Part shown: one piece after another, positions 2,692 to 62,632 of the stretch
Layout: the number at the start of each line of letters is the position of its first letter
Position numbering within the stretch: the first letter of the stretch is position 1
Assembly (NCBI GenBank): GCA_006384855.1
Contig: VCJN01002339.1
Coordinates: 32,034-96,033, forward strand
Length of the DNA: 64,000 bases
Source of the DNA: Tetraselmis striata
Taxonomy: Eukaryota; Chlorophyta; Chlorodendrophyceae; Chlorodendrales; Chlorodendraceae
Reading direction: 5' to 3'
Notes under the pieces: model-generated
Told to the model about the DNA's origin: nothing
Seen by the model: only the letters and a program-made list of their open reading frames with translations
Databases searched by the model: none
Made by a program: the position numbers and the translations under genes

Positions 2692-4231
2692 GTCGTCGCT
2701 GTCGAGGTGTCGGCTGAGTCGATCCGCCCACACGTTCGCGGCGGACCGGATGTAGCGGGTTCTGATGTGTACGCCGTTGCTGTCCAGCAGGTACCATAGC
2801 TTGCGTAGTTCCGCCATCATCGCCGGAGAGTGGGAGCTGAGGCCATCAAGGACGCTGCACACCGCCTCGTTGTCCTCGTGCAGCAACACGCGGCGACCAG
2901 CGAGGTGCAGCAGGAAAGACTCCACTGCCAGCCGGACGGCCTTCATTTCTTTCTAGATGATGTGCTGGCGCTCGTCGGCTGCCTCCCAGAACCCCCGCGC
3001 CTCCAGCCTGCCATTCAGCACTGCACCCCAACCGTAGCCGGAGCTGTCGCAGTGCATGTAGGCCGTCTCCACATGGCGGTGGATAGGGCGGCCGTTGGCC
3101 TGAGTCGGCACGGCAGTCCGCCACTGCAGGTCGCGCCGCAGCTGGTGTGTCATGCGCACTCGGCCGCCCCACTTGGAGCCCACCACGTCGTGGAGCTCCC
3201 GCAGGTAGAAGCGCGCGGCCGGGATTGCCAAGAAAAGGCATTGAGCCCGCCCAGCGAGCGACTGCAGCTCCCGCACGGGTAGCCAACGGGCGTCGTGGGC
3301 CGCGCGCTGCAGCAATGGCTTGGCTTGGCGCGCGAGCCGCTGCAGTTTGTCCACCGGGGCATAAAAATATCCCGTGGCTGTGTCGATGTCCACCCCCAGG
3401 TGCTGGCCGTACTGGACCGGCTCCCACAGCCCTTTGGCGGGTTGCGCAGCAGGCCCAGGCTGTCCAGCAAGTCGGAGCTCCAGCGCCTCCGGCTCCGACG
3501 AGGCGAACAACAAGAAATCGTCGACGTATGGTAAGATGCGCGCTCCCCTCCACCGCCCGCGGCGCAGGCAGCGGCGTGACCGCGGGACATTGCTAGGCGC
3601 AGCGGGGGTAGTCGGAGAGCGTAGGTGCTTGACGAACGTCATCGTGAACGTCGTGAAGTAGTAAGGGCTGAGCGACCAGCCCATGGGAAGGCCGCACAGC
3701 CGGTAGAGGGTCCCGCGGATGTTGACTGTGAAGTAGTCGCGATCGGAGGGCGCGATGCCCAGGGCATAGAAGACGTCTTGCAGGTCGAACGAAAACATGT
3801 AATCCCCTTTCGCGGTCAGGTGTCGGACGCCCATGAGTGTCTCCATCCGTAGTCGCTTGCGCGCCCAGAAGGTGTTGAGCACGCGGAGGTCGATGATGAA
3901 ACGCCACTAGTTGCCGCCGGGCTTCGGAACGAATAACGCCCGGGACACCCACCATGCGCACGACGACTTCTCCCACGCGCCGGCCGCCGTAAAGCGTCTT
4001 AGTTCGGCGGTGAGGAACTTGAGTTGGGCAGGGGTTGCGTCGTTGAATGAGACGCCTTGGTTGAACCTTGGGGCGGGCCGGTTGTAGCGGAAAGGCACGC
4101 GTACGCCATCCCGTATCCAGCTCGTCACTTGCGCGCTCGCGCCGATGTCTCGCCAGTGCCGCCAACTCCGCCTTACGGGGTGACGCATATAGTCAGAGTC
4201 GGGGCAACAGCTGTCGGCGCGGCGCGCCACA
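2692..4231 (-). pseudogene. P1 reverse transcriptase - RNase H, with in-frame TAG codons
   Basis: The polymerase of P1. Visible reverse transcriptase motifs, in order: WVSRALFVPKPGGN (fingers), FIIDLRVLN, FSFDLQDVFYALGI with the first catalytic aspartate, YRLCGLPMGWSLSPYYF, and PYVDDFLLFA, the YxDD catalytic box. The RNase H domain follows with MHCDSSGYGWGAVL (first Asp), AVRLAVESFLLHLAGRRV (Glu), LLHEDNEAVCSVL (Asp) and ANVWADRLSR (final Asp). One frame runs through all of this but is broken by TAG at 3907-3909 and 2953-2955, and ends at TAG 2689-2691. The domain order and the following MT and YR genes identify a DIRS/PAT-like element rather than an LTR or LINE element. The start is uncertain; I place it just after the gag stop at 4235. 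Confidence 0.85.
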
Positions 4232-4234
4232 CCG

Positions 4235-5243
4235 TCAGTCGCGTGTCTTGTCGCCGGTCCTGCCGCCGTTTTTGCCGCGGTTCTTGGCGTCCGCCTCGCG
4301 GCGTTGCTGCTCCCGCCTCTCGTGCGCCGCCTTGTCCTTTTCCTTTCGCTCCTTGACGCGGTCGGTGTCGCGCTCCGCTGCTTGCCTCTTGAAGGTCGTT
4401 GATGCCTGTGCCTTGGCCGCAGCCGCGAGGCCGACCTCGAGGCGCTTGTCCTCAAGCGCTGCCAGGAGGCCGTCGACGACGTTGGCGGAGCGTTCATGCT
4501 CGGCGGTGTCGAAGACTCGGGAGTAGATGAGTCGCTCGGCGACTTGTTCCTCGGGGGTGAGGGCCTTCTTGGCCTTGAAGCGTCGAAGGTAGGTGAGCCT
4601 GGCCTCATCCGCGTCGCCCACTGCTTCAAGCGTGCGATGCGCGGCGTCGAGTAGGTCGAGGGCGTCGACGCGGTCTTGGGTGGGGGTATAGGGCGCGCGA
4701 AGCGTAGCCAGAGCTGTCTTAGCCGCCGGGTTAGCGGCGGCGCGGTAGACGCCATAGCACAGCAGGTGGCGGTACTCGTCGCGCGACGCAGTCTTGTTGG
4801 CCTCAGTGAGATAGCGGTCGGCCTCGTCGTTACGGGGCCGCCAGAGGCTCGGGCGTGTGGCGCCCGACGGGGGGGGGGGGGGGGGGGGGGCAGTCTTGGT
4901 ACGCCCGGGGCAAGAGGTCTTCCCAATCCCGAGGGTGGATGAACACGGCCGCGGCGTCGCGCGCGCCCCCCGTAGCAGCGGTTGTCCGGGCGTCGTGCTC
5001 CGGCTCCTTGCCACCCTCGCCGACTTCGTCGTCGTCCGAGGGAATGTCGCGCTGCTCCGTGTGCTTGTGGTTGTCCTGTTCGTCCAAGCGGGTCGATAAA
5101 GCGTCCACCTTCAACGCCAGCGCTTGCAGTAACGCAAGCGTTGTCGTGTCCCGTGTCGTCTCTGTCGGCTCCGCGGGCGTTTCGGCCAAACTGTCGGCTG
5201 GCGTTGCCTTCGTAGGGTCTGCCGCCTTCTTGCCGCCTGCCAT
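4235..5243 (-). pseudogene. P1 gag-like protein (frameshift at a G22 run)
   Basis: The first gene of P1, starting at the ATG at 5243 about 100 bp downstream of repeat A1. The N-terminal part is acidic with a helical stretch (LALLQALALKVDALSTRLDE). A 22-base G run at 4869-4890 (proline codons in the sense strand) separates it from the rest, which lies in another frame. The second part has NDEADRYLTEANKTASRDEY followed by HLLCYGVYRAA, and a Lys/Arg/Glu-rich coiled tail ending in GGRTGDKTRD. The Y-L-x(10)-EY...C-(Y/F)-G pattern also occurs in the gag of P2 and P3, so I infer a shared gag domain. No zinc knuckle is visible. The homopolymer could be a real mutation or a sequence-length error. Confidence 0.65.
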
Positions 5244-5340
5244 CGTAGCGTGCGCAAGTGTCGTGGTGGAAGACTAGTCGTCGAGACCGTCCACTCGTAG
5301 AGATATTCACACCTTGCACACCTACGAGAGGTGCGACGCC

Positions 5341-5589
5341 GTTGCGCTAGCTGGTAAGCTGGCGCAAATGCAGAGGGTGGACTCCCCTCGTCGTGCGGGT
5401 GCGTCATGTAGCAGGGTTGTCGCATGCTGTCGCTAGCGCCGTTGGACATCGGGAAGTCCAAGCGGTACGCGTACTGCGAGTACATGTACTGGTCGCTAGC
5501 ATTCAAACTACTGTGGAATCTTAACGTTACCAGTACCGGTGACAGAATAGCCCGGTGTAATCAAACCTCTATATTACCAATCTGACCAT
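5341..5589 (-). repeat. P1 split repeat A1 (5' end)
   Basis: 249-bp direct copy of 744-992 at the 5' end of P1. It ends in gaccat directly against the A-rich start of the right arm of Q1. It presumably contains the promoter of the element, although no TATA box stands out. Confidence 0.85.
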
Positions 5590-14548: not shown

Positions 14549-14781
14549 ATAATGTATTCCGCCCGTCCACTGCCGCGCGCGCGCTATCGCGGATTAGGCC
14601 AGAGCGTATCGAGATTGTCGGGCTTCAAGGGGCAGATGTAAAAATAGTCCGCATTGGATGCAGCGTCGCGAGGAAGTGTAATATGCGCATGATGCAGTTT
14701 ATTACGAGTACGTCACGGAATGACTACATACGAGTGTCATACTACTCGTAAGATTACAAGATAAATACATGGTATTACATC

Positions 14782-14811
14782 ATAATTACGAGACGGGCTG
14801 GGAGCCTAGTG
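14782..14811 (-). repeat. X1 right terminal inverted repeat
   Basis: Read inwards it begins CACTAGGCTCCCAGCC. The adjacent 14690-14780 carries TTACGA-type subterminal motifs and is similar, in inverse orientation, to 22480-22657 (X2). Confidence 0.82.
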
Positions 14812-22428: not shown

Positions 22429-22657
22429 GCTCCCGCACCACTTCGTAAGGCTCCCGCACCGCTTCGTAAGTATACTATAAATAATACCCTGTATTTTTTC
22501 ATCGGTAATCTTACCACACTCGTCCATAGTCATTCCGTGACATACTCGTAATAAACTGCATCAGGCGCATATCACTGCTCATCATCACGACGCATCATCA
22601 ACAGTGGAGTATTTCGGGAGTGCATGTCTAGAAGCCCGACAATCTCGCTGCGTTCTG
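22429..22657 (-). mobile_element. X2: terminal segment of a second CACTA-like copy (left of P2)
   Basis: Inversely oriented and homologous to the right end of X1 (14605-14760): shared stretches include the complement of gcagtttattacgagta and of gagattgtcgggcttc. A 21-bp motif (CTCCCGCACC-CTTCGTAAG) is duplicated at 22429-22470. X2 is cut at 22657 by P2 and resumes at 25858. Confidence 0.65.
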
Positions 22658-22838
22658 ATCTAAACTAGTTTATGGGGTTTCCATCCTTGACCTAACCGCT
22701 TTTTAGCTACAAGTGCTGCTCAGTGGTACGGGAACTAGTAACTGTTGTTGCGCCCTTGTTGGGTGCAGCAAGAGTTGACATAAAAGCAGCCAGAACAGTT
22801 GAGCCTGTCATCTTCCAGTTTTCGCTGCGTTCCACGCA
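22658..22838 (+). repeat. P2 split repeat A1
   Basis: Direct copy of 25554-25734 with few differences. It begins ATCTAAACTAGTTTATGGGG at the 5' border of P2. Confidence 0.88.
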
Positions 22839-22954
22839 TCGATGTAAAAACTGTCTCGTAACCAGTTGCGAGCAAGGTCACCCCAGGTTGTTCAAGAACA
22901 CACCCGGCTCGCCATCCGAGTGTGATATTCTCGTCCGTACGTCCGTGCGTTACT

Positions 22955-23808
22955 ATGTCAGATGGAGAAGAACCCGTCGTTGAGCCGACGCTCAAGTCAC
23001 TGCAAGCAGATGTACGTGCGTTGGCTACGGCTGTAGCTCAATTGACGGCTCGTGAGCGTGTTGTTGATGGAGAAGGGGCACATGGCTCTCGCTCCGGGCA
23101 GCGCATCGCGGGACAGCCGACAGGCAGCGGGGGAGCCGCAGAGCGCCCCGACTTGCTAGAGCTAGCCCATAGCGGCCGTGTCGGAGCAAAATCCGTGAGT
23201 GCCGAGGATGACTACCTCGCGGTGCCAGAATTACTGCAGAGAGCAGAGTCTGGTTATGAGGCCGTCGACCGGTCAGCCGAGTGCCTGGACTCTTTCCCTT
23301 GAGCACCGACCTAACGAACGAGTACCTCAAGCAGGATGACCGGCGTCTGCCGGCCCAGGAGGAGTATTTGTGGATGTCGTGTTTCGGGGCCCACATGGCC
23401 GCGCTTTTCGTGGCTCTCGACGAGCTACTGCCCTACGTCCCTGCCACCAACCATGACTTCACCCCCTACCTCGCGAGAGCTCGGAACCATGCCGAGGCCA
23501 TCGACAAGGCGTTTCGGTTTCGTCTGGCCTTCCTGCGGAGGCTAAATGAGATCAAGCGTGTGCACGGTGACCAAGGTGTTCTGGATGTGCTGCGAGCCCA
23601 GCATTTTCAGCCGGCTTCGGAGCATCTGGGCTCCGCGATCTTTGGGGACCTCATGCGGGACTACGAGCGCCGTGTCTTCGAGGCGACCGTTGCCAGCAGC
23701 GCGAAAGCAACCGCCACTGCACGAGTGGTGGCTGCATGTGCCGGCCGCGGGCGTGGGCGAGGACGTGGTGGTGGGCGTGGGCGTGGCCGCGAAGGTGAGC
23801 ACGATTGA
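22955..23808 (+). pseudogene. P2 gag-like protein (1-bp frameshift)
   Basis: Starts at ATG 22955 (MSDGEEPVVEPTLKSLQADV) with a short coiled segment (LATAVAQLTARE). A central region with DYLAVPELLQRAESGYEAV is followed by a frame change: P2 reads GTCGAC at 23264-23269 where P3 reads GTTCGAC, and P3 stays in one frame through this point, so P2 has lost one base. The second part has DLTNEYLKQDDRRLPAQEEY, SCFGAHMAALFVALDELLPY and FRFRLAFLRRLNE, similar in pattern to the gag of P1. It ends with an RG-rich tail (GRGRGRGGGRGRGRE), probably nucleic-acid binding. It would form the particle or RNP of the element. Confidence 0.7.
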
Positions 23809-23965
23809 CGGTGTGGGGCGCCTTCCGTCGGAGCTGCTGGAGCTTTGCGAGGCCACCTTTCGGTGACCGCCGCAAAACGCACCCTTGCAGCTCAACGGCG
23901 AGATGAGCGCGCCGTGTTAGGGCCTGACCCCCCCCACCTTACAGACTTCCTTTAGACCTTCCTCG

Positions 23966-25472
23966 GTGCGGCGCTTCTCACAGCTACAGCCGAGTGCGAC
24001 TCAACCATCCGCACACCTGCACATGGCGGCTCAACTAACCGCCTCCCGTACCATTCCACCAATGCGTCCGTCGGTTGTTACACTACGTGTTACAACTGGT
24101 TCGCAACGACCAAGTTTCGCGCGGGTACGTTACGCGCGAGACAGGCGCAACGAGCGCGAAGGGCGCGCAGGGCGGCCCTCTTACCTGAACCTAGCCCCGC
24201 AAACCCGTACCGATGCTATTCCAAACCCGTCCAGCAGCTACCGGCCAACCGCCGGGAACCTAACTGCTGCTGCCGAGTACTTTGCGAACAGTAGTCGTAC
24301 CGGTGGAACTCTGTCAGTAAAACGACGCACTTACGTAATTGACGAGCCCGAAGCTGTCGCTCCCTGGGCTGCTTCATTGCGAGCTCGGCTGCAGGACGCG
24401 TTCGGCTCAGACGAGCTGGGACAGCGGACGCTCGACCTACTCTCCAGCTCCCTCAGCGCTCAGACACTCAAGAGCTATGCCGGCCGGCTGTCTCAGTTCG
24501 CGGAGTTCTGTCACGACTCCGAGAACATCAGCCCGCTGGAGGCGACTACTGCGACTGTCGTTCGGTACGTTGCCTGGATCGGCGAGCGGGGGCACATCGC
24601 CGCTAAGTAACTGCAACCTTACCTGTCTGCGATCAACACGTTCTTCGAGCTGCACAACCTCGACCCAATCGCCAAGGACAGCCTGCACTTAACTTCAGCA
24701 AGGCGTGGGCTGATGCTGCGTCAGCGCCGACTGGACGCTGCCCCTTTGCGTGTCCCTCTGCCTGCGGATGTGGCTTACCGCTTCGTCACAAAGGCCGAGC
24801 GGAATTGTGTCTGCTCCCTACCCAGAGTACCACCACAACTTCCGGGCCCTCCTGGCCTCGGTTGTCAACTTTATGTTCTTTGCCAGGGGCCTTACTGGCG
24901 TGTCCTGTCGAGTGCGAGACGTGCATGTCGACGACTACAACATCACCCTGCAAGTGTACCGCGAGAAAGGTCGCGCTGGTCGACGGGGACCCAACGACCT
25001 TCGCGTACTTCTCCTTCCGGTGTCCGAGCACCCTCGAGTGGCACGTCTCCTGCACCACTGCATCGACAACGTCCAATCTGTTCCCTGGGCTACTGTTGAC
25101 TTGGCTACATCAAACTTCTGGGCTGTCACTGCGGCCGAGCAGTCAAAACCTTGGACTGCGGCTACAATGTCAGACTGGCTGTCTGCAGCCATCAGTCTAG
25201 TCAACGCTGCCTCCCCTGCTGGCACTTCCTGGGCTTCACACAGTCTTCGCAAGGGCGCAGCTTCTGCAGCTAACGCCATCGGAGTGCCACTGTCCCACAT
25301 CCGCTACCAAGGCGGTTGGGCCACTAACTCTGATGTCGTTCTGGACTACATCGACCCCAACGTTCTTCCTTCTCCTGGCGCGTGGTTCTTCTTTGGACAC
25401 ATCGCCCCCCTCCGCCACTTCCAAGTCCAACATGACTCCGCAGCGGTGGCCTTCCCAGTGCCTCCTTCATGA
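23966..25472 (+). pseudogene. P2 tyrosine recombinase (TAA and frameshift)
   Basis: Starts at ATG 23966 with a basic, disordered leader. A core-binding domain (LGQRTLDLLSSSLSAQTLKS, then ATTATVVRYVAWIGERGHIA) is interrupted by TAA at 24608-24610, where P1 and P3 have a serine codon. A second frame change lies between about 24780 and 24830. The catalytic domain is complete: MFFARGLTGVSCRVRDVHVD holds a candidate first Arg, SHSLRKGAASAANAIG supplies H-x-x-R, YQGGWATNSDVVLDYID gives the W and the nucleophilic Tyr. It ends at TGA 25470-25472, just before B1. The protein is closely related to the P1 recombinase. The breaks mean this copy cannot make the enzyme. Confidence 0.82.
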
Positions 25473-25525
25473 CTTGGCGCTACCCCTTCTCCGTCAATCC
25501 ACCGCTCTCTACGTTCAGTCAAGAC

Positions 25526-25734
25526 TGGCAAAACCAGACTCAACTTTGAAATGATCTAAACTAGTTTATGGGGTTTCCATCCTTGACCTAACCGCTTTTT
25601 AGCTACAAGTGCTGCTCAGTGGTACGGGAACTAGTAATTGTTGTTGCGCCCTTGTTGGGTGCAGCACGAGTAGACATAAAAGCAGCCAGAACAGCTGAGC
25701 CTGCCATCTTCCAGTTTTCGCTGCGTTCCACGCA
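25526..25734 (+). repeat. P2 internal B1-A2 junction
   Basis: B1 (28 bp, tggcaaaaccagactcaact...) joined directly to A2 (181 bp). The junction gaaatg/atctaaac copies the sequence formed when both ends of the element are joined in a circle. Confidence 0.88.
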
Positions 25735-25829
25735 GCGCCCCCCCTGACTCCGTTTTCCTTCCACGCTTTCGCTAAACCATTTTGCCAATTTCGGCTCTTG
25801 ACCGTGTAAAACAGCCTGCGCGACCTTTT

Positions 25830-25857
25830 TGGCAAAACCAGACTCAACTTTGAAATG
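25830..25857 (+). repeat. P2 split repeat B2 (outer 3' end)
   Basis: 28 bp identical to B1. Immediately followed by gcctaatccgcg of the target X2. Confidence 0.88.
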
Positions 25858-48454: not shown

Positions 48455-50358
48455 CACCAGGTCGGCTCTTCTACAGTACCCAACATATATGTGTATGTGT
48501 GTATGGTCACCTGATCGACTAGAAATCCCAGAGAACCCGGCAGACAAGAAAGCACTCGTCCCAGGATCTGCTGTGCCGCGGCCTGCCCCCATGTAGGCGG
48601 ATTGTGTATCAATCCCATAGTACATTGGGTTGCTATCATCAGTACTGTGCGCCATGTGCGTTGCTGAGCCTGCTGAGCTATCTCCTGCTCCGCCAGAGTC
48701 CGCCATGTGGCTTGCTGAAGGTCCAATCTCATAGCGCGAACAGCTGCCCATGCCATTCGTGAATTCCTGGCCATGCATGAAGTCCTGCCCAAGCTGAACA
48801 TCAAATTGGTTTGAGAGCTGAGTCATTGGCGAGCTGGGCAGCTGCTCACATGAACCATACAAGCCTGCTGGCCGTGCCAGAGGAGAGTTCCGGCCATGGC
48901 CCTGCCTCTGCATTCGCCCCAGCGGAGATCCTGGCTGCGTAGAACCGGCGCTTCTTCTCGGCGATCTGGTTTTGGCAGGAGAGGTACGGATCATGGGGAT
49001 TGTTGGTCCAGCGCCAAAGGCAGCAGGAAACCCGCTGCCCACGCCATCGTCACTGAAACTTGAATACGACCCATTCTCTACGTGGACGGCTGGTCCGGCA
49101 CGGTCGTCAGAGTCCAGCAAGCGGGAGAAAGAGCTTGGGTCGTAGCTCTGTGATCTGCCGTAGAGCAGAGCCATGTTTGGGCGCATCTTCTGGACAGTAA
49201 AAAAAACAGCGGGTCACCAGGAAGGTCAGGGGTTGCATAGGCGAAAGTGTTGTATGCCGACATTCTGTCTGACTGCTATTACGTTTCGAATCCCCGCAAA
49301 CCAGTGTGGCCTACTTGAAAGGCAGGAGTGAGCAGAAGGGTATGCTTGCAGAAAGCTGGGGGCAAGGACTTGCCTGCTGCCCGCTAAGCTGCATCCGGCC
49401 ACCCACTGGGGATGATGGCATTGACTGGCAATCCAGGGGGGCGGTATGCCCTGGCTCTAGATGCAGCGACTTCATGACATTCGCCTCAAGGTCTCTGGCA
49501 GCTTGAGCTCGCTGTTTGCATAGCATGAAGCACCGCATTGCTTCATTGGCACTGGCGAGCAAGCCCTAGATCCACAAAGTGCGACAGTGCAATTCAGCCG
49601 ATAAGCTCAATGAAAGCAACATATGACGGGTCAGGACTCAGAGTGCGTGCACCCACCTCCATATGCGCGGAATCTCCGTCCCAGGATGACTGCTTTGCCA
49701 TTACCACACTCTCTTCCAGAATGGCTGATGCTTGCTCGCAGGCCGACTGTGCATTGGAGAGCTCTGCCTCTGCCTTCATCCGTTCATCCCGAGCACGCGA
49801 ATAGGCGCTGAATCCCTGGTAGCGGCCAGTTTGACCATACTGCGGCGTACCGGCCGCTGCCCCGGCATCCTGTGACCCTGGGCGCGCCTGCCCTGAAGAC
49901 GTTGCATTTGGGCCAAATGTGAAGCTGTTGGAGCGACCAGCTGAGCGCCGGTTCAGCTTGTTTGCCCTCAACGCGATGGCTTGCTTTTCTTCCTCTGTCA
50001 GGTGGCGGAACTTCACTAGGTTTCGCCATTTGTCTTTTATCTGGACACCTGTGCGCTGCTGCAGGAGCTTGAAGTCAGGGTCCTGTCGAATTGCTTCCCA
50101 GTTTCCGACTCCATGACGTTGCACACCCCGCCTGAGTAGCATCATCTCATCCTTGTCCCACGCCTTGTACTTCTTCGGGGCCTTTGCATCGAATTTCTTT
50201 TCATCATCTTCGGTTGCAGGGTCTGGTGTTTTCATGTCCTTTACTGTCGCCTTCGATGGCCGCGATTTCATCTCGATCTGCTCATCGTTGACACCGGCCT
50301 CTACTTTGATGTCCACTGTGGGAGCTGCCGCTTCAACCATTGCCTGCATTGGCTGCAT
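47956..50358 (-). CDS. Telobox-type Myb/SANT protein, 5 exons
   Basis: Exons on the minus strand: 50358-49657, 49565-49374, 49189-48511, 48356-48309, 48227-47956; 1,893 bp, 630 residues, stop TAG. ATG 50358 is the first after an in-frame TGA. Residues about 64-117 are one Myb/SANT domain: KYKAWDKDEMMLLRRGVQRH, GNWEAIRQDPDFKLLQQRTG, VQIKDKWRNLVKF. The last piece is the telobox signature (V-D/K-x-K-D-K-W-R-N) of telomere- and telomere-motif-binding proteins (TRB/TRF class). A nuclear DNA-binding role at telomeric repeats or promoters with related motifs is inferred. A Ser/Gly/Gln/Met-rich, probably disordered C-terminal half follows, ending SCSDVFFDCMEDVLANDGLM. Introns 1, 3 and 4 are GT-AG; intron 2 starts GCAAGT and ends CAG, a GC-AG intron that keeps phase. 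A CA microsatellite lies in intron 3. Confidence 0.85.
48414..48452. repeat. (CA)n microsatellite in intron 3 of the Myb gene
   Basis: About 38 bp of perfect alternating CA on the plus strand. Confidence 0.95.
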
Positions 50359-51586
50359 AACACACAAAAGCAGGACAATTCAGCGGAGAAGAGTCGCTGT
50401 AAGTAACACGAGCGGCGAGTCGCTAGCAAAGGGTATATCCCAAGAGAAGGGGGTCGGAGGAGGCCCGGGGGGGGGGGGGCGGGGGGGGGGGTAACACGGG
50501 CAAAGAAGCCCGTAAGAAGAATACTGGCCACAGTGCTTTTATATGCTTGCGCCGTATGCACTTGCAAAGAGAGACGACTAGGCACTGCAGCGAGAGGTGT
50601 GTGGGCAGCACGCTAGGGTAAATACACCGGGACGTCCCATGCGCTCGAAGAGCCGCGACCGTGGGCATCAGTGTTGCACACTCAGCAGCGTGGTCTGGAG
50701 GCGAGTCGGCGAGTCCACCGCTTCACACTCTGCACGTAGAAATACCGCTAACGGCGACTGTTGCAGGTGCCGCTCGCGGCTGTCGAGCACCCGCACCCCT
50801 ATACCGCCAGCGTCGCGACGAACACATTGTCCGTACGAACGGCACCGTCCTGTGCGAATCCGTGAAGTGCGAATCCTCTCAGATACGGCCAGCCAGGGCC
50901 AGGTCACCCGCCAAACGCGCATTCACCCGCTTCCCCGCAAGCAATCATCCAAGCCGCGGATAAGGCTGCCATTACTGGTGCAACCTCCCTCTCACTTAAT
51001 GTTAATGCTGAGAAGTAAACCCAACGGCATGCAGGGGATGTCCCTCCGCGAGTTTCTCGAACTAGTAGTGGGTTTGCACACTGCACGCTTCCGCACCGCC
51101 CACATAGCTACGCGATATAAACCGCTCGGAGGCTGTCAGCGCACACGCACTACCTTAGCCCCGAACACCAAGGATGCGATCAGCTAGCCGCGGCTGCATG
51201 GGAAGCACGCAATGAGCCGTGAGTGTACAGCTCCAGCCGTGGGTCCCCAACTACCACATCCGCCCGAGGTAGGGAGGGCAGAAACCTTAATCCGAATGAA
51301 GTGGTCCAGAAACTGCCCTGCGATATACTCGCCTTGCGGCACTAGTTGTCAGTACTCTTAGTCGTAGCAAGCGCTTTGATTTACGTTGCGAGCAGGCCCG
51401 GAGAACCACGAGAAAATAGTAATAGCATTGCTGGACGTCAACTGCGCAGCGCAATGGTGGAAGAGCGCACGCTTTCTCTTGGACGACAGGGCCAGGTAGC
51501 TCGCCATCACGCGAGTCGGACAAACCTGAACTACTGGTAGCGACTACCAGCATCGAGCAGTACAAAGCGCAGGTTTCGTTTGATAA
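50359..51586. other. Upstream region of the Myb gene and unassigned sequence
   Basis: Holds the 5' flank of the Myb gene, with broken G runs at 50468-50491 about 110 bp upstream of its ATG. Open frames around 50597-51187 show no recognisable domain. Confidence 0.4.
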
Positions 51587-51588
51587 TA

Positions 51589-52216
51589 CAGTGACTATAC
51601 CGATATAATAAACATTGCGTCCCCCCCCCCCCCGTTCACTATGTCGGTATGTTCACTATATCGGTGTTCATTATAAGCAGGCCCACCCGACCGCTATAGT
51701 AAACGGTTTACTAAATCGGTACTATTGTTTATTGTAACGGTGACCCCGTTCACTGTAGCAGTCTCCAGGCCTTATCCTGCAGTTGTCTAGATAGGAACAG
51801 CGCTGCTCGGTGGGCGTCGCCATGGCGCGATGGCGACAGACGCGGTGGGGCAGTTGAGTGGCGGTGGGCGCAATGTGCCGCAGTGTGCCGCCGCCGCCGC
51901 CGCCGCCGAGTGGCTGTAGAGGCCTCTGCGCCCGTACTGGAACGGTACCGGCTATCGGAACACGCCAACGGCCGGGTTCGGCGTCGGCAACACTGCCGTT
52001 ATGTAGAGAAGTTTACTATATCGGTATAGTTTGGGGCATTGTGTCCCCCCCCCCCCCCCCCCGTTCACTATAGCGGTAAGTTTATTATATTGGTAAGTTT
52101 ATTATAGGGGTATACATAGGGATTTTTCCCGGTGTTAAGAATCCGTCCCCCCCCCCCCCGTTCACTATATCGGTATGTTCACTATATCGGTATTCATTAT
52201 ATCGGTATAGTCACTG
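51589..52216. mobile_element. 628-bp MITE with Tc1-like ends
   Basis: Flanked by TA (51587-51588 and 52217-52218). The inverted ends are identical for 21 bp, beginning CAGTGACTATACCGATATAA. TA duplication and CAGT termini are typical of Tc1/mariner. Inside are many degenerate copies of GTTCACTATATCGGTA and C runs of 13-17 bases, plus a unique GC-rich centre. No transposase, so non-autonomous. Another copy starts at 63945. Confidence 0.85.
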
Positions 52217-52323
52217 TACTGTAATATATTATTTTCCTGTCATGTCATCGATCTTAATAGTACGCGGGTACCTGTACTGGTGTGAAATACAAGAAGGCCA
52301 GTAGTGGTACTACAGTGGTAGTA
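52217..52323. other. Spacer between MITE and P3
   Basis: Short sequence with several GTAGTAC/GTACTA motifs; nothing coding. Confidence 0.4.
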
Positions 52324-52482
52324 CATTTCAAACAAGCAGTAAAAATCATGCATTACAAATAAGTTGAGTCTGGTTTTGCCAGTGTTGACTGAACACAGGG
52401 AGCGGTGGATTGACGGAGAAGGGGTAGGGCCAGGTCATGAAGGGGGCACCGGGAAGCCCACCGCTGCGGAGTCTTGTTGGAC

Positions 52483-53975
52483 TTAGAAGTGGCGGAGGTG
52501 CGCGATGCGGCCGAAGAAGAACCCCACGCCAAGCGAAGGAAGCAAGGATGTTGGGATCGATTTGTATTCCAGAACGACGTCGGAGTTAGTGGCCGAGCCG
52601 TTGTGGTAGCGAATGTGGGACAGTGGAGTTCCGATGGCGTTAGCGGCAGACGGTGCTCCCTTGCGAAGGCTGTGTAAGCTCCGGGAAGTGCCGGTGGGAG
52701 GGGCTTCACCGACATTAAGACGAACAGCCGTAGAGAACCACGCACTCCGACATTGTGGCGGCGGTCCAAGAATTGGACTGCTCGCTCCGGGTGATCGCCC
52801 AGAAGTTAGTTTCGGCCAAGGCAATAGGAACCAGGGGGGCAGACTGTACGTGGTCGATGAAGTGGTGCAGGAGACGCGAGATGCGGGGGTACTCTGACAC
52901 TGGAAGGAGCAGTACGCGCAGATCGTCGGTACCCATCGACCAGCGTGCGTGGCCTTTCTCGCAGTACACGACCTGCAGAATAATGTTGTAATCGTCGACA
53001 TGCATATCCCGCACTCGGCAGGACACGCCAGTAAGTCCGCCCCTGGCAAAGAACACGAAGTTGACAACCGAGGCCACGATGGCTCGGATAGTTGTAGTAG
53101 TACTCGGGGATGGGAACAGACACAATCAACTATGCATGCTTGACGAAGCTATAAGCGACAATACCAGCAGGCAGAGGGATGACTCGCAAAGAGGCAGCCT
53201 CTAGGCGGCGTTGCCTTCGCATCATGCCATGACGAGCTGCAGTAAGGTGCAGGCCGTCCTTGTTTGGCGATTGGATCGAGGCGGTTGTGTTGCTTGAAGA
53301 ACGTGTTGATTGCTGACGGGCTGCAACGACTTAGCCCCAATGTGCCCACGCTCACCAACCCAAGCAACGTACCGGACGAAAGTAGCAGTAGTCGCCTCCT
53401 GCGGGTTAATGTTCTCGTAGTCGTGGCAAAACTCCGCGAACTGAGACAAATTTTCCGGCGTAGCTCTTGAGTGTCCGAGCGGTGAGTCAGCTGGAGAGTA
53501 TATCAAGGGTTCGCTCCCCCAACTCGTCTGAGCTGAACGCGTCCTGCATCCGAGACCGGAGTGAAGCAGCCTAAGGGGCAACAGCTTCGGGCTCGTCAGT
53601 TGCATTAGTGCGGCGCTTGGCCGACAGAGAAACAGAAGGTCGGTTCATGTTAGCAAAGTACAGGGCGGTAGCAGTTAGGTTTTTGGTGGTTGGCCGGTAG
53701 TTGTTGGAGGGATTCGCAACATCACTAGTACTACGGGTTTGCGGGGCTAGGTTCAGGTTGGAGGGCCGCCCCGCGCGCCCTTCGCGCTCGTAGCGCATGT
53801 AACGCGCGTAACGTACACGCGCGAAGCTTGGTCGTTGCGAACCGGTTGTAACACGCAGTGTGACAACCGACTGACGCAGCGATAAGATGGTATGGGAGGC
53901 GGTTTGTTGAGCCGCCATGCGCAGGTGTGCGGATGGTTGAGCCGCACTTGGCTGTAGCTGTAAGAAGCGCCGCAC
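52483..53975 (-). pseudogene. P3 tyrosine recombinase, decayed
   Basis: Starts at 53975 (MRRFLQLQPSAAQPSAHLRM), close to the P2 protein. It keeps EATTATFVRYVAWVGERGHI and AKSLQPV (serine where P2 has TAA), FVFFARGGLTGVSCRVRDMH, HSLRKGAPSAANAIGTPLSH and SDVVLEYKS, but the W/H position is changed (HNGSATN for QGGWATN), there is a TAG after EPEAVAP, and the frame changes at least three times. Ends at about 52483. Not functional. Confidence 0.75.
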
Positions 53976-54008
53976 CGAGGAAGGTCTAAATTAAGTTTGT
54001 AAGAAGAA

Positions 54009-54025
54009 GGGGGGGGGGGGGGGGG
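54009..54025. repeat. G17 homopolymer
   Basis: Seventeen consecutive G between the gag and YR frames of P3; P2 has a shorter C-run (sense) at the equivalent place. Confidence 0.85.
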
Positions 54026-54093
54026 TATTGGGTATGGTCCCGACACATGGCGCTCGTCCCGTTGTTGAGCTGCTAAGGTTCGCCTCGCGGCGG

Positions 54094-54912
54094 TCAACGA
54101 AAGGTGACCTCGCAAAGCGCCAGTAGCGGTTGCTTTGCGATGCTGGCAACTGTCGCCTCGACGACGCGACGCTCGTAGTCGTTCATGAGGTCCCCATCAA
54201 TCGCAGAACCTGGATGCTCAGAAGCAGGCTGAAAATGCTGGGCTCGCAGCACGTCCAGAACGCCTTGATCACCGTGCTCACGCTTGACCTCGTTAAGCCT
54301 CCGTAGGAAGGCCAAGCGAAAACGAAACGCCTTGTCGATGGCTTCGGCGTGATTCCGAGCACGCGCGAGGTAGGGGGTGAAGTCTCGATTTGCAGCAGGG
54401 ACGTAGGGTAGCAGCTCGTCGAGAGCTACGAAAAGTGCGGCCATGTGGTCGCCGAAACACGACATCAAAAGATACTCCTCCCGGGCCGGCAGACGCCGGT
54501 CATCCTGCTTGAGGTAATCGTTCGTTAGGTCGGTGCCCCGGGGGGAGAGTCTAGGCACTCGGCTGACCGGTCGAACGGCCTCGTAACCAAACTTTGCTCG
54601 TTGTAGTAGCTCAGGCACCCGCCAGGTAGTTGTCCTCGCCACTCACGGATTTTGCTCCGACACGGCTGCTCTGGGCGGGCATGCTCTAGCAAGTCGGGGC
54701 GCACAACGGTTCCCCCGATGCATGTCGGTTGTCCCGCGACGCGCTGCCCGGAGACGGAGACGTGTGCCCCACCTCCACCAACTACAACGGTCACGAGCCG
54801 TCAACTGCGCCAACGTTGTTGCAAGCTCGCGCATCAATGTAGACTGGGCCTCCACGTTTGCTTGCAGCGATTCGAGCGTCGGCTCGACGACGGGTTCTTC
54901 TCCATTTGACAT
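54094..54912 (-). pseudogene. P3 gag-like protein, decayed
   Basis: Starts at the ATG 54912 (MSNGEEPVVEPTLESLQANV). After a frameshift in the GGGGA region it continues to PELLQRAKFGYEAV, and stays in one frame across the position where P2 has lost a base, through DLTNDYLKQDDRRLPAREEY, HMAALFVALDELLPYVPAAN and FRFRLAFLRRLNE. It lacks the RG-rich tail seen in P2. Confidence 0.65.
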
Positions 54913-55206
54913 GGTAACGCACGGACGTATGGATGAGAATTTCACACACGTGGTGAGCTGGGTGTGGTCTTGAACAACCTGGGGTGACCTTGCTCGCAAC
55001 AAGTTACGAGACAGTTTTTCATAGCTGCGTGTAACGCAGCGAAACTGGAAGATGACATGCTCAGCTGTTATGGCTGCTTTTATGTCTTCTCGTGATGCAC
55101 CCCAAAAAGGGCGCGACGACGGGTGCCTAGTTCCCGTAACACTAAGCATCACTTGTAGCCGAAAAGCGGTTAGGGAAAGGTAGGAAACCCCATAAACAAG
55201 TTTAGA

Positions 55207-55389
55207 ACATTTTTATACATGGCAAGCGTTCCTATCGTACCAGTTCGTACGGGACGCGAAAACTACCCGGCCGCTGACCACGACGTTTATATTCGTCCCG
55301 CCCGGTCAACATTTCAGTACATGAAATCCTTTTGCAGCTAGCTCTTGTAACTATTAGCTTTTTGGCAAAAAAAGGAAAAAATCCGTACC
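55207..55389. other. P3 flank, duplicated at 56480-56633
   Basis: About 160 bp of non-element DNA next to the P3 5' end that recurs, almost unchanged, next to P5. The duplication therefore happened after insertion of the element. Confidence 0.65.
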
Positions 55390-56000
55390 ACGAGAGGACT
55401 CTTGCTAGGAATCGAGGGTTTTGATCTAAACTGGTTTGTGGAGTTTCCTCCTTTCTTAAGCTCTTTTCCGGCTACATGTGCTGCTAAATGGTACGGGTTA
55501 CTAATACACCCGTCGTTGCGCCCGTTTGTGTGCAACACGAGTACACATAAAGCAGCCGTAACAGTTGAGCCTGCCATCTTTCTAGTCTCGTTGTGTTACA
55601 CGCGGCGGTTATCTGTCCCCGAACCTGTACGTTGCGGTCAAGGTTACACGTTTTCTCAAGACCACACCCGGCTTACCATATGTGTGTGTAATTCTCATCC
55701 GTACGTCCGTGGGTCACCATGCGAGATGGAGAAGACCGCGTCGACGCTCATATCGCTTCAAGCATACATGCTGACCAAGTCTACATTGCTGCTCGAGCTC
55801 ACATCGTCGTTTGAAATCACTTCAAAAGATCCCAGCATGTAACATACATGTTGGGAGCCGCATATATAGCCATGTAGCCGGTACACGGGCAGCCAAGTAC
55901 CGGTATATCGCGATGTACGAGTATCGTCGGCAACGGGCAGCCGAGAATCGGTACGAGGATAGCTAACATCGTTGGCCCAATTGACGGCTCGTGAACGTGG
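55390..56000 (+). mobile_element. P4: 5' fragment of a gag-YR element, plus strand
   Basis: Diverged copy of the A repeat and gag start: GATCTAAACTGGTTTGTGG, MRDGEDRV-like start near 55720, and AATTGACGGCTCGTGAACG at 55979-55998, matching the gag coding region of P2. It runs into P5, which has the opposite orientation. Confidence 0.6.
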
Positions 56001-56479
56001 GCTGTCCCGCGATGCGCTGCCCGGAGACGGAGCCATGTGCCCCACCTCCACCAACTACAACGGTCACGAGCCGTCAACTGAGCCAACGTTGTTGCAAGCT
56101 CGCGCAGCAATGTAGACTGGGCCTCCACGTTTGCTTGTAGCGATTCGAGCGTCGGCTCAACGAGGGTTCTTCTCCATTTGACATGGTAACGCACGGACGT
56201 ATGGATGAGAATTTCACATAGGTGGTGAGCCGGGTGTGGTCTTGAACAACCTGGGGTGACCTTGCTCGCAACAAGTTACGAGACAGTTTTTCATAGCTGC
56301 GTGTAACGCAGCGAAACTGGAAGATGACATGCTCAGCTGTTATGGCTGCTTTTATGTCTTCTCGTGATGCACCCAAAAAAGGGCGCGACGACATGTGCCT
56401 AGTTCCCGTAACCCTAAGCATCACTTGTAGCCGAAAAGCGGTTAGGGAAAGGGAGGAAACCCCATACACAAGTTTAGAA
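56001..56479 (-). mobile_element. P5: 5' fragment of a P3-type element, minus strand
   Basis: Nearly identical to the 5' end of P3 (54722-55206), including MSNGEEP and the A1 repeat. Together with 56480-56633 it is a duplicate of the P3 end and its flank. Confidence 0.7.
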
Positions 56480-57927
56480 CATTTTTATTCATGGCAAGCG
56501 TTCCTATCGTACCAGTTTGTACGGGATGCGAAAACTACCCGCTGACCACGACGTTTATATTCGTCCCGCCCGGTCAACATTTCAGTATATGAAATCCTTA
56601 GGCAACTAGCTCTTGTAACTATTAGCTTTTTGACCACACGCAGGTGAAGATAGCGGCGGGTGGCAAGGCTCGCCATCACAGCAGCCCCCGTGTGGTGTTC
56701 AACAAAGCAGCGAGCATGGCAGTGCACCTCCGGTGCTGCACGATGCCTTGGTCATGGCAGACGCCCCGCTCGGCTGCGCGCCAATACATAGGGAGGATTG
56801 CGGAAGGCGCGACAGTTGCCGGGAGCAGCAGCGTGTCGGTTTGCCACTGGCGCAGCCGGATCATGTACGCGCTGAGCTTCTTCCTGGGTGATTTGACACA
56901 TGCAAGGCGCTGATTCGCTGAGCTTAACCCCATACGGCACAGCCGACGGCTCCAAAGAACCGTGGCAGGGATGCAGAGCGAGGTGGCAGGTTTTAGGGTT
57001 TGCTGACTGACCGCATGCTGACGATGAGTGTGCATGGCTCTGGGTGGGTGGCGATGAATGGGGTCAGCCAAAGTGGGGGGGGGGGGGGGGGGGGGGGGAG
57101 TAGCATGCAGCGCTGACACATAGTGGGGGCTGAGCACGTGCGTGGGCCATGCGACCCGCAGGTGCGAGGCTGGAAGGCTGTCTCCATGGGGGCGACAGTG
57201 GCGCTAGTGAAAACAGTCCCGAAACATGATCCGTCAGGCCTCGTCCAGCATGAGGCGGCGCCGAGGCCGGTAGAGAAGGTTCGCATGAAGGGATGCACGG
57301 GCATCCTCCATGCTCCAGATGGTGCACTCGTCGAAACGGGGTCCGCCTAACCGCGTTTAACGACTACCACGCGCGATTAGTCGCCTGTATATATCGCGCC
57401 TAACGTTAGGCGTCACAGTACTTTAAACTTGGCGGTAAGGATGAGTACGGCAGCGGAGCCCTGCATCAAAGTACTATAGCGAGTAGCGGGTACTCGGTAG
57501 TCACGAGTGCACAAAGTACGACACGAGTACACGAGTCACTGTACTTTACGGGAATCGCCGCCCTTCATATCTGCTATTAGGCGCGCGCCTCCTCACGAGT
57601 ACGCGCGGAAGATACCCGCGTGATGACGAGTGATGATGACGAGCAGGCGGGGCAGTAGGGTACTGGTCGATACACAACAACGGCTCCAAAAATGCATTAC
57701 ACGGTAGTCACGGTTGGTTTTGTGATTTAATAAAGGTGAGGTGCCAGGCTGGATCAGCGGCCAATGAGCGTCGAGCTTCGGGGTGTGGTTAAGCGGACTT
57801 GGGCGCGCCTACTCCTAGCTGGCAAATTTAACGTCAAGGCACCGGATATTTTCGGATTTATGGCGGAGGGGTCGGCAACTGCATAAAGTATTAGAGAAAT
57901 ACTAGAAATTTAATTACAATCGGTCTA
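56480..57927. other. Unassigned; G34 run
   Basis: First part duplicates 55207-55365. 57075-57108 is 34 consecutive G. The minus strand between about 57330 and 56640 reads like possible coding sequence (for example VHPFMRTFSTGLGAASCWTR) but I cannot assign exons or a family. Confidence 0.3.
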
Positions 57928-60196: not shown

Positions 60197-62632
60197 ATGA
60201 GGACCTCCGTCACCGAAGGCGCTCGTGTATCAGCCCGCCGAGGGCCCATGCTACCCCTGAGTGGCGACCAGCGTCGGTGCCAGCGTGCTCGGCTGTTCGG
60301 CAACGTTACTGAGTCCGTCAGCGAGGGCAAATGGATGGTCCGCTGGGACAACGCCCCGGCCGACGTCCAAGAGTCCGGCCAGGCACTCGACTGCGAGCAA
60401 GCTACTGCTGGTCGCACCCCTCCCTCGGCTGCCTCTACGCCACGAGGTCAAGGGTCTGCCGTCGGCCCTTTCGTGCCGCCCCGCCCTGCCGCTGCTGCTG
60501 ATGCGAGTGCGAAGGCGCTGGGTGGCAGTCGTGGAACGATCGTTACAGGCAGTGTCGTTTCCGACACCGGCACCCCCACCGAGATCCCATCCATCCCTGC
60601 GACCTCTTCCCCAGCCTCTATCCTAGCGACCCAGCCCCTGCCTGCCGACAACCTTGACATGCCTGCCGAGTCACAAGACAGCCAGCCAGGCGTCGAACTC
60701 GCCAAGGAGCTGGGCGATAGCTCCGGGGACGAGGAGGCGCCAGAGCAATATGTCGGCGGCGCCTCACCCGACGACGGCCACAAGGATGCCGCCTGGATCT
60801 CCCCCGCTCCTGGCACCACCGTCGTCCTGAAGCAAGGCAGCAAGATTGCAACTTGGCCAGTGTTTAACTTAGACAGCGCTGAGGAGATGGCCAAGATGCG
60901 AGACACTACTGCCCAGCGAGAGGCAGCTCGTACCTTGCCAGTTGGGTTGCGAGATGGGCTGCCCATTGGCGTTGGCAGCGTCGACTTGGTTCAGCTCTGG
61001 GTTATGATGTACCATGCGACCTGTCTGCCGACCTGGAGAAGGTCAATGCTGCTGGCCTGCGCCGTTCATCAACACAAAAGCTGATCAGCATGCATGAGTA
61101 TGTGAGGTTCTGGGAGCTGGTCATCGACGGCGCGCTGTACTCTCAGCAAGGCAGAAATCTGTGGGCTACCAACATCACGTTTGATGGCCTTCGTGACCAG
61201 CCTAACTTCCAGCGCTACATGCCCCTTCACCGTTTCAAGTATATCCGGTCGCTAATCAAGTATGCTAAGGCTGACCTCGACTCTACTGTGAGGGATCCTT
61301 GGGCGTGGTTCGCCGTGCTGCAACCGAGTTCAACGCCAACAGCGCGACTATCCTGAACGCCGGGATCCTTGCTACTATGGATGAGAGCATGTCCGCCTAC
61401 CAGCCCAGGGCAACCAAGCTGGGCGGCCTCCCCAACCTGAGCTTCATCTACCGGAAGCCCAAGCCGCTGGGCACTGAGATGAAGACAGTATGTGACTGCA
61501 ACACCGGTGTGATGACCTACATCGAGATCCCGGAGGGGAGGGACCCTATGCGTGTGAAGCCGCATGCTGCTGAGCACGGTGTGACTACCGCTTGTGTGAT
61601 GCGCATGGCTGAGACCTGCACCAGCGCCGACTCTACCCTGCTGGGCGATGCGTGGTTCGGGTCTGTGAAGGTATGAACCTCGTCCTTTTACCTCGTGCGT
61701 TTATCATGCTGTGATGGGCAAATGCAATTACTAATGTTTCTTACCTGCTATGCCGTCCCCCAAGCCGCTGTCCAGGTGGGCAAGATGGGCCGCCACTTCA
61801 TCGGCGTCGTCAAGACTGGCCATGGTCTGTTCCCAAAGGCCTTCCTGAAGAGCCACCTGACATCAGCACCGGCAGGCAGCAGGGTTGCTCTCTCAGCGAT
61901 AGTGGATGGTGTGGATCTCATGGCAGTGGGCTACAAGTACAACATGAGGAAGGTGTTGTTCTTAGTGGCCACAGCTGGTGCCAGCCCCCTGGAGGATGGC
62001 AACCCCTACATGCAGCGCTGGGCGGACGACTTCGGCAACACCGTCACTCGGAGCATCCCCCGCCCATATGTGCTGTCCAGCTACTTTGAGCGCAGCCCCC
62101 GCGTCGACAACCACAACCAGTCGCGCCAGCATGATCTCGCGCTGGAGGAGACCTGGAATACCCAGGACTGCTGGTTCCGACTCGCGACTACCCTCTGTGG
62201 CATCGTCACCACCGACTGCTGGAAGATCACCAAGTTCCACGTCCCGTATGCCCACCCCTACGCAAGCATGACTATCAAGGACTTCTCGGAGCTGATGGCG
62301 AAGGCCCTCATTTACAACGGGCTGGAAGGCGACCTGGCGCCATCCCGTCCCCCCGGCCACCGCCTCGCCATCGCGCCCAAGCGCTACCTGGACACCACCG
62401 ACCAGCACACCCCTGGCAACCACGGGCGATACGCGAACGGCCGCTGCAAGCAGTCGAGGTGCTGCCGTTGCTACCGTGACGAGGGCGAGGAGCACTGGAG
62501 CTCGTTCTAATGCGTGCATTGCGGCATCACCTTGTGCGTGCCCAGCTCGGTGCACAGCCGGGACTGCTGGGAGCACCACCTCCACTGCGACGAGACCGCC
62601 ATCCGCCGCATGAAGCACGCCCGCGCCGGCTA
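60197..62632 (+). pseudogene. PiggyBac-type transposase, broken; one intron
   Basis: Starts at ATG 60197. A small barrel-like domain comes first (GARVSARRG...RLFGNVTESVSEGKWMVRWD), then an acidic disordered region. After a frame change near 60995 follow MHEYVRFWELVIDGALYS and MPLHRFKYIRSLIKYAKADL. After a second change near 61310 comes the DDE core: LATMDESMSAYQPRATKLGG (first Asp), STLLGDAWFGSVK (second Asp), an intron at 61671-61775 (GTATGA...CAG, phase 0), VGKMGRHFIGVVKTGHGLFP, and RSPRVDNHNQSRQHDLALEE (third Asp). A TAA at 62508-62510 interrupts the C-terminal zinc-binding domain, which continues in frame as CCRCYRDEGEEHW, CVHCGITLCVPSSVH and ends at TAG 62630-62632. Three defects make it a pseudogene. 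No flanking TTAA with matching termini was found. Confidence 0.82.

What the first reader, a model, noticed from the sequence alone, without database searches (positions are those of the whole stretch)
22658..25857. A gag-plus-recombinase element with split direct repeats but no reverse transcriptase, seen twice
P2 has the complete A1...B1-A2-B2 repeat architecture of PAT retrotransposons and carries gag and a DIRS-type tyrosine recombinase, yet only 157 bp lie between them. P3 (52324-55206, opposite strand, clearly diverged) has the same compact order. Two diverged copies with the same missing polymerase imply a lineage that spread without its own RT, either using the RT of relatives such as P1 in trans or moving as DNA circles. 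Cryptons have YR without RT but lack gag and split repeats, so this layout does not fit the standard classes. To my knowledge it is not a described class, but I cannot search.
Basis: partly seen in the sequence, partly recalled or inferred. Interest (0 to 1): 0.85.

Follow-up and report, generated by a model that had tools for sequence, protein, structure and literature searches.

The report
Mobile element lacking its reverse transcriptase
A genome that is probably a green alga's carries well over a hundred copies of a small mobile element that keeps a capsid-like gene and a DNA-recombining enzyme but has no gene for copying RNA into DNA, yet its repeats look as if they are renewed by that kind of copying, so it probably borrows the copying enzyme from related elements.

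Summary
P2 (22656-25855) has the full A1...B1-A2-B2 layout, broken gag and tyrosine-recombinase (YR) genes, and no RT. It is one of a large family in a 224-Mb genome, probably a green alga's. None of 37 copies read gives an RT match. In a subfamily about 20% diverged (P3 type), 40 of 41 listed gag pieces are followed by YR within 100-336 bp; P3 itself is truncated at B1. RT-bearing PAT elements with related YR and the same end motifs (P1, L051) share the genome. Both frames are open in 16 of 37 copies. Variants shared among copies are mostly synonymous, private ones only about half, so selection kept gag and YR. A1 and A2 carry the same allele in 390 of 403 cells, as PAT reverse transcription predicts and plain circle excision and reinsertion does not. 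Three insertion sites tested are exact, without duplication. Best reading: an old RT-less branch of PAT elements that makes its own Gag and YR and uses RT in trans. The trans step is inferred; gene conversion and DNA circles are not excluded. No description was seen in ten literature searches.

The parts
22656..25855 (+). P2, complete RT-less gag-YR element with split direct repeats
   Evidence: uninserted relative at window 14568-14807
22656..22841 (+). A1 repeat
   Evidence: 97% identical to A2
22955..23805 (+). gag-like ORF1, broken by a frame change (frames 22922-23299 and 23281-23805); uninterrupted relatives 284-291 aa
   Evidence: tblastn with P0002: 22955-23299 and 23266-23805
23867..25469 (+). 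tyrosine recombinase ORF2, broken by an in-frame stop and a frame change; uninterrupted relatives 482-522 aa from the first ATG
   Evidence: tblastn with P0001: 23867-24799 and 24804-25469; Pfam; frames
25526..25551 (+). B1 repeat, begins TGGCAAA
25552..25737 (+). A2 repeat; B1|A2 is a circle-type junction, AAA|TGATC
25738..25829 (+). tail between A2 and B2
25830..25855 (+). B2 repeat, right end
52361..55209 (-). P3, diverged RT-less gag-YR copy, truncated inside B1 (no A2, tail, B2)
55997..56484 (-). A1 plus gag-start fragment sharing P3's left flank (local duplication)
55422..55764 (+). fragment related to the element's first 353 bases
   Evidence: 73% identity
627..5589 (-). P1, RT-bearing PAT element: A 5341-5589 and 744-992, B 991-1019 and 627-655, gag 4238-5014, RT 2956-3882, YR 967-2391
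14568..14807 (-). uninserted relative (74% identity) of the P2 insertion site
   Evidence: junction columns intact, no duplication

Best explanation
P2 belongs to an old, recently active branch of PAT (split-repeat DIRS-order) elements that has no RT or RNase H between gag and YR. Proposed cycle: the element is transcribed; its own Gag packages its RNA, mostly in cis; RT-RNase H from an RT-bearing PAT relative in the same genome (P1- or L051-type) makes the cDNA and rebuilds the ends by annealing over the A and B repeats; a circle with a B|A junction forms; the element's own YR inserts it precisely, without target duplication, at sites resembling nTA|(T/C). Shown: architecture, copy number, absence of RT in the copies examined, exact insertion at three sites, joint change of A1 and A2, selection on gag and YR, presence of RT-bearing relatives with the same end motifs. 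Inferred: loss of RT from an RT-bearing ancestor, RNA intermediate, RT in trans, cis-preference of Gag and YR, circle intermediate.
For: Family and compactness. No RT: 0 of 37 elements; 0 of 81 YR match rows with RT upstream; 28 of 30 gag-YR pairs 61-120 bp apart, the other two adjacent copies. Repeat renewal: A1 equals A2 at 390 of 403 cells of 13 informative sites, 249.5 expected; mean A1-A2 difference inside a copy 0.019 against 0.056 for A1-A1 and 0.042 for A2-A2 between copies; 0 of 10,000 re-pairings as low (31 of 37 copies). A passage of PMC6681497 says the proposed PAT/Ngaro reverse-transcription model implies near-identical A1/A2 and B1/B2 at insertion. Selection: dN/dS 0.157 for gag (21 copies) and 0.302 for YR (25 copies); 0.138 and 0.207 for pairs with dS 0.2-0.5. 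Shared variants 56 synonymous to 15 nonsynonymous for gag and 118 to 38 for YR, private ones 71 to 79 and 162 to 165; Fisher p 1e-5 and 5e-8. Exact insertion. Possible RT donors: P1 and the L051 family, with common motifs TGGCAAA at the start of B and AAATG(A/G)TC at the B1|A2 junction.
Against: No RNA, cDNA, particle or circle was seen. Joint change of A1 and A2 could also come from gene conversion or unequal exchange, and head-to-tail arrays exist. The own A2 is the nearest or tied nearest A2 in only 21 of 31 copies. Age fit is moderate: A1-A2 difference against terminal branch length gives Spearman 0.33, p 0.07; Pearson 0.59 leans on one diverged copy, L045. Gag may do something other than packaging: in Cafeteria Ngaro, ORF1 is linked to integration-site choice (PMC8547959 passages). 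The RT donor is not identified; YR identity to RT-bearing relatives is about 39%, and P2-family gag does not match L051 gag directly. Genome searches score only the best candidates, so an RT-bearing member could have been missed.
Confidence: 0.72

Rival explanations
1. The element has become a DNA transposon: YR excises it as a circle, circles are copied as DNA and reinserted by YR; no RT is used.
For: No RT gene in the copies examined; exact insertion without duplication; head-to-tail arrays, one with period 2916 and identical units that share A and lack the tail (C2249), one with period 3203 in which B2 is joined to an A1 lacking about its first 16 nt (C764), as circles or concatemers could give.
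Against: Plain circle excision and reinsertion would leave A1 and A2 to change independently, yet they agree at 390 of 403 cells; B1 and B2, readable together in 27 of 32 copies printed, are identical in 14 and differ by 1-2 nt in 13; gag is under purifying selection.
Confidence: 0.12
2. RT is supplied in trans but by an unrelated retroelement (LINE or LTR type) and not by a PAT element.
For: The genome holds many other RT genes: the RVT_1 search scored 150 of 3001 candidates, many in open frames of about 1540 aa.
Against: P1 and L051 share the B-start and junction motifs with P2; renewal over split repeats is a PAT-type process (inference from the model cited).
Confidence: 0.08
3. Repeated independent deletions of RT from RT-bearing parents, not a lineage.
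For: Non-autonomous deletion derivatives are common among retroelements in general (recalled).
Against: Near-constant gag-YR spacing across subfamilies; no RT-bearing parent with P2-type YR found; YR is about as far from P1 and L051 as these are from each other (39%, 38.5%, 41%).
Confidence: 0.03
4. A1/A2 agreement is due to gene conversion between repeats, so it says nothing about RT.
For: Arrays with 99.8-100% identical units show that exchange or amplification between copies happens.
Against: Agreement holds at dispersed copies (0 pairs of 37 share a flank by the criterion) and extends to the 26-nt B repeats, which differ between families but match inside each.
Confidence: 0.1

Closest known systems
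PAT-like elements of the DIRS order (Pat1, Toc3, Kangaroo)
   Same: A1...B1-A2-B2 split direct repeats, gag-like ORF, YR, insertion without duplication; homologous YR in P1 and L051, homologous gag in P1
   Different: P2 family has no RT or RNase H; PMC4157794 passages describe PAT elements as YRE retrotransposons of the DIRS group, which encode a putative methyltransferase
Cryptons
   Same: YR without RT
   Different: PMC3212892 passages: Cryptons have short 4- or 6-bp direct repeats and no long direct repeats; P2 has split repeats and gag, and its YR aligns with PAT YRs
SIRE, non-autonomous derivative of VIPER
   Same: Derived from a YR retroelement with split repeats; corresponds to the A2-B2 region (PMC6681497 passages), like the solo A2-tail-B2 copy at C2750
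   Different: About 0.4 kb by the segments described; P2 family keeps two reading frames under selection
Gag-only LTR elements (TR-GAG; Copia-N1 and Copia-11 of Ectocarpus)
   Same: A gag ORF without RT (Copia case: PMC12477816 passages; TR-GAG: search listing only); RT in trans presumed
   Different: LTR elements that keep only gag, whereas the P2 family also keeps its own recombinase

Membership tests
PAT-like retrotransposon | Split direct repeats A1...B1-A2-B2 | tested here: met
PAT-like retrotransposon | DIRS-type tyrosine recombinase | tested here: met
   39% identity over 358 aa to the P1 YR, E 2e-66; HSLRKG and the final Tyr region invariant in three YRs
PAT-like retrotransposon | Gag-like ORF1 | tested here: met
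   P0002 vs P1 gag 27% over 128 aa, E 1e-6; direct BLAST to L051 gag not significant; P1 to L051 33%, E 4e-17; no Pfam hit
PAT-like retrotransposon | RT-RNase H | tested here: not met
PAT-like retrotransposon | Insertion without target duplication | tested here: met
   uninserted relatives for P2, L010 and L020
PAT-like retrotransposon | RNA intermediate | not testable with these tools
   only the A1/A2 agreement speaks to it
Crypton | YR as only mobility enzyme, no RT | tested here: met
Crypton | No long direct repeats (passage) and no gag (recalled) | tested here: not met
Non-autonomous retroelement using RT in trans | Autonomous partner with matching ends in the genome | tested here: inconclusive
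   P1 and L051 share short motifs, but no partner with P2-type A and B repeats was found

The most novel reading that the evidence does not exclude
A retrotransposon lineage has lost reverse transcription and turned into a self-sufficient gag-plus-YR DNA element: circles are replicated as DNA, Gag packages or targets DNA or guides integration, and repeats are renewed during circle replication or exchange.
Probability: 0.12. Interest if true: 0.88.

Novelty: new variant of a known kind. Interest (0 to 1): 0.62.

Why it matters
Non-autonomous retroelements often lose most of their genes (recalled). Here a lineage appears to have dropped only the polymerase part, kept packaging and integration genes under selection, and still reached high copy number. 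That makes two questions about YR retrotransposons testable in one genome: how far RT can work in trans, and how far Gag and YR work in cis. It also offers a natural halfway form between PAT retrotransposons and RT-less YR transposons, which bears on the debated origin of Cryptons.

Tried and rejected
Rejected: chance repeats (against 36 near-full genomic copies); assembly duplicates or alleles (0 pairs of 37 copies share a left or right 300-bp flank; criterion at least 100 bp, over 85% identity, same offset); independent deletions; RT-bearing members suggested by two long gag-YR gaps (adjacent copies).

Led nowhere: SSU rRNA search for host identity (no usable answer); viral-contig scans for relatives of the YR (none, 28 pattern matches, none a relative); structure prediction (switched off); a literature query with a two-letter term (error). 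Host: an rbcL on C1177 best matches a Rubisco large chain, 1gk8, which I recall as Chlamydomonas; a green alga is likely, species not identified. A guess at a Tetraselmis genome gave nothing usable. L001-L008 (RVT_1 loci) were fetched and not analysed.
Full report
What is in the window. P2 spans 22656-25855 on the plus strand. A 186-nt repeat (A) lies at 22656-22841 and 25552-25737 with 97% identity. A 26-nt repeat (B) lies at 25526-25551 and 25830-25855, identical in both places. The order is A1-gag-YR-B1-A2-tail-B2, the split-direct-repeat layout. Both genes of P2 are broken: gag by a frame change, YR by an in-frame stop and a frame change. P3 (52361-55209, minus) is 78.6% and 83.2% identical to P2 in two aligned pieces, has gag and YR in the same order, and stops inside B1, so it has no A2, tail or B2. 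A nearby A1-gag fragment shares P3's left flank and is a local duplication. P1 (627-5589, minus) is a PAT element with its own A and B repeats, gag, RT and YR.

It is a family. The window lies in a 224-Mb genome of 2903 contigs. DNA search with P2 gave 43 matches from 35 scored candidates; 36 copies are near full length, P2 included and two of them in two pieces, the others 82-97% identical to P2. I read these and one partial copy, 37 in all, with their flanks. By the criterion, no two of the 37 share a left or right flank, so they are separate insertions. Protein searches gave 81 YR and 134 gag matches, both lists cut by the tool's candidate limit; 76 of 81 and 125 of 134 have no stop inside, but these are the best-scoring matches and not a random sample. 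Among the 37 copies, gag is open (280-295 aa) in 21, the YR frame is at least 480 aa in 25, and both hold in 16; some of the long YR frames run past the usual end.

No RT. RT proteins of P1 and L051 find nothing in the 37 copies (tblastn, E 0.1). From coordinates, 30 of 134 gag matches have a listed YR match downstream: 28 at 61-120 bp and two at 3.3-3.4 kb. Both long gaps were read and are adjacent RT-less copies. The other 104 gag matches have no listed YR; the two lists are capped and cut at different scores, so they say nothing either way. A 601-bp gag-YR junction from the young subfamily is contiguous in 40 of 40 listed matches, but that list is the best 40 of 2020 candidates and so favours contiguous ones. 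With P3 as query the gag and YR pieces align separately, so this is a fairer test: 40 of 41 gag pieces are followed by a YR piece, 39 at 100-157 bp and one at 336 bp, with pairing allowed up to 8 kb; in one (C1839) no YR piece was listed (a second piece of the C505 gag and second pieces of two YRs were left out of the pairing). As a control, 41 of 96 P1-type YR match rows have a listed RT within 4 kb upstream, against 0 of 81 P2-type rows (some loci give two rows). The RT list was made with P1's RT, so a very different RT could escape that comparison, but not the spacing tests.

Relatives with RT. L051 has A1 650-832, gag, a frame with RVT_1 (over the cut-off) and RNase H matches below the cut-off, YR, B1, A2 5260-5442 and B2. 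Its A1 and A2 differ at one of 183 positions. One search lists 21 RT matches in 849-aa open frames with nearly equal scores, L051's among them; their mutual identity was not measured. YR identities are 39% (P2 family to P1), 38.5% (P2 family to L051) and 41% (P1 to L051): three about equally deep branches. Gag of the P2 family matches P1 gag at 27% over 128 aa, E 1e-6. It does not match L051 gag directly, but P1 gag does (33%, E 4e-17). B starts with TGGCAAA and the internal B1|A2 junction reads AAATG(A/G)TC in P1, P2 and L051; P3-type A repeats start TGTTC. Pfam finds no RT or RNase H in the P2-family YR frame at E 0.01.

Insertion. In 24 copies with both ends complete, the base left of the element is A in 15, the one before it T in 15, and the base right of it T in 14 and C in 10 (not tested against background). 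Uninserted relatives were found for P2 (window 14568-14807, 74% identity), L010 (in L051's flank) and L020 (in L017, and with a nearby indel in L016). For P2, L010 and L020 against L017 the site is joined exactly, with no duplication. This is what a tyrosine recombinase gives.

Renewal of repeats. In 31 of 37 copies (32 had both A repeats; L042 was dropped because its A2 call was spurious), A1 and A2 of the same copy differ by 0.019 on average, A1 to A1 of other copies by 0.056, A2 to A2 by 0.042. At 13 informative sites the two repeats agree in 390 of 403 cells (249.5 expected); 0 of 10,000 re-pairings gave as low a within-copy difference. The copy's own A2 is the nearest or tied nearest A2 in 21 of 31. 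Among the 32 copies printed, B1 and B2 could both be read in 27; they are identical in 14 and differ by 1-2 nt in 13. PMC6681497 (passages read) says that the proposed reverse-transcription model for Ngaro and PAT implies near-identity of A1/A2 and B1/B2 at insertion. The fit with copy age is moderate (Spearman 0.33, p 0.07; Pearson 0.59, p 0.0005, leaning on L045). Gene conversion is not excluded.

Selection. Pairwise dN/dS is 0.157 for gag and 0.302 for YR overall, and 0.138 and 0.207 for pairs with dS 0.2-0.5 (the script stopped on an empty block after printing these figures). YR frames that run on past the usual end probably raise the overall YR figure. Variants carried by three or more copies are mostly synonymous (gag 56 to 15, YR 118 to 38); private variants are about half synonymous (71 to 79, 162 to 165), so they are less constrained but not clearly neutral. 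Only copies with open frames entered, which removes stops and frame changes but not missense changes. So both proteins were needed while the family spread. Because altered copies left fewer descendants, Gag and YR probably act mainly on the copy that encodes them. This last step is inference.

Arrays. C2249 has head-to-tail units of 2916 bp, identical in the stretch read, sharing A and lacking the tail; gag coordinates suggest four units, with similar periods on C2200 and C1388. C764 has units of 3203 bp, 99.8% identical, in which B2 is joined to an A1 lacking about its first 16 nt, with a third junction listed further on. These could reflect circles, concatemers or unequal exchange. An A2-tail-B2 solo copy lies at C2750.

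Mechanism. I think the element makes its own Gag and YR and uses RT-RNase H of a PAT relative in trans. Gag under selection, renewal of A1 and A2, and RT-bearing relatives with the same junction motif point that way. The DNA-circle route remains possible but needs another cause for the A1/A2 agreement and for keeping gag. Gag could also serve target choice, as suggested for ORF1 of Cafeteria Ngaro (PMC8547959 passages).

Known kinds. It works like a non-autonomous PAT element but fails one defining feature of PAT retrotransposons, RT, so I file it as an RT-less PAT-related lineage and not as a PAT retrotransposon. Cryptons lack long repeats (PMC3212892 passages). SIRE is a short VIPER derivative (PMC6681497 passages). 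Gag-only Copia elements of Ectocarpus are the nearest analogue in another order (PMC12477816 passages). In ten literature searches and in passages of nine papers I saw no description of a gag-plus-YR element without RT. The library is open-access only and I did not see the main reviews of this group (Goodwin and Poulter 2004; Poulter and Butler 2015; known here from reference lists). Repbase was not searched. Toc1 of Chlamydomonas may be a related non-autonomous element (recalled, not checked).

Host. An rbcL best matches 1gk8 in the PDB, which I recall as Chlamydomonas; a green alga is likely.

Noticed in passing
L049 (G000:C2249:55300-62900): Head-to-tail array of identical 2916-bp units (A-gag-YR-B1) without tails; similar periods by coordinates on C2200 and C1388.
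   Followed up: partly
L050 (G000:C764:24900-31900): Array of full elements, period 3203, each B2 joined to an A1 lacking about its first 16 nt, units 99.8% identical.
   Followed up: partly
G000:C1981:4671-5543 and C817:21837-22709: Gag matches lie in open frames of 842 and 541 aa, longer than the usual 322: possible gag fusions.
   Followed up: no
window 61695-62507 (+): Weak match to DDE_Tnp_1_7 (E 0.0057, below cut-off), possibly a transposase remnant.
   Followed up: no
window 49597-50367 (-): Frame with a Myb DNA-binding domain (E 1.3e-09), possibly a host gene.
   Followed up: no
window 52000-52224: Short tandem motifs around TTCACTATATCGGTA with long runs of C next to P3.
   Followed up: no
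G000, RVT_1 search: Very many RT matches in long frames of about 1540 aa, a separate high-copy retroelement.
   Followed up: no
G000:C890:111421-111999 and C2473:86456-87034: Two weak Rubisco-large-like matches outside the rbcL contig.
   Followed up: no
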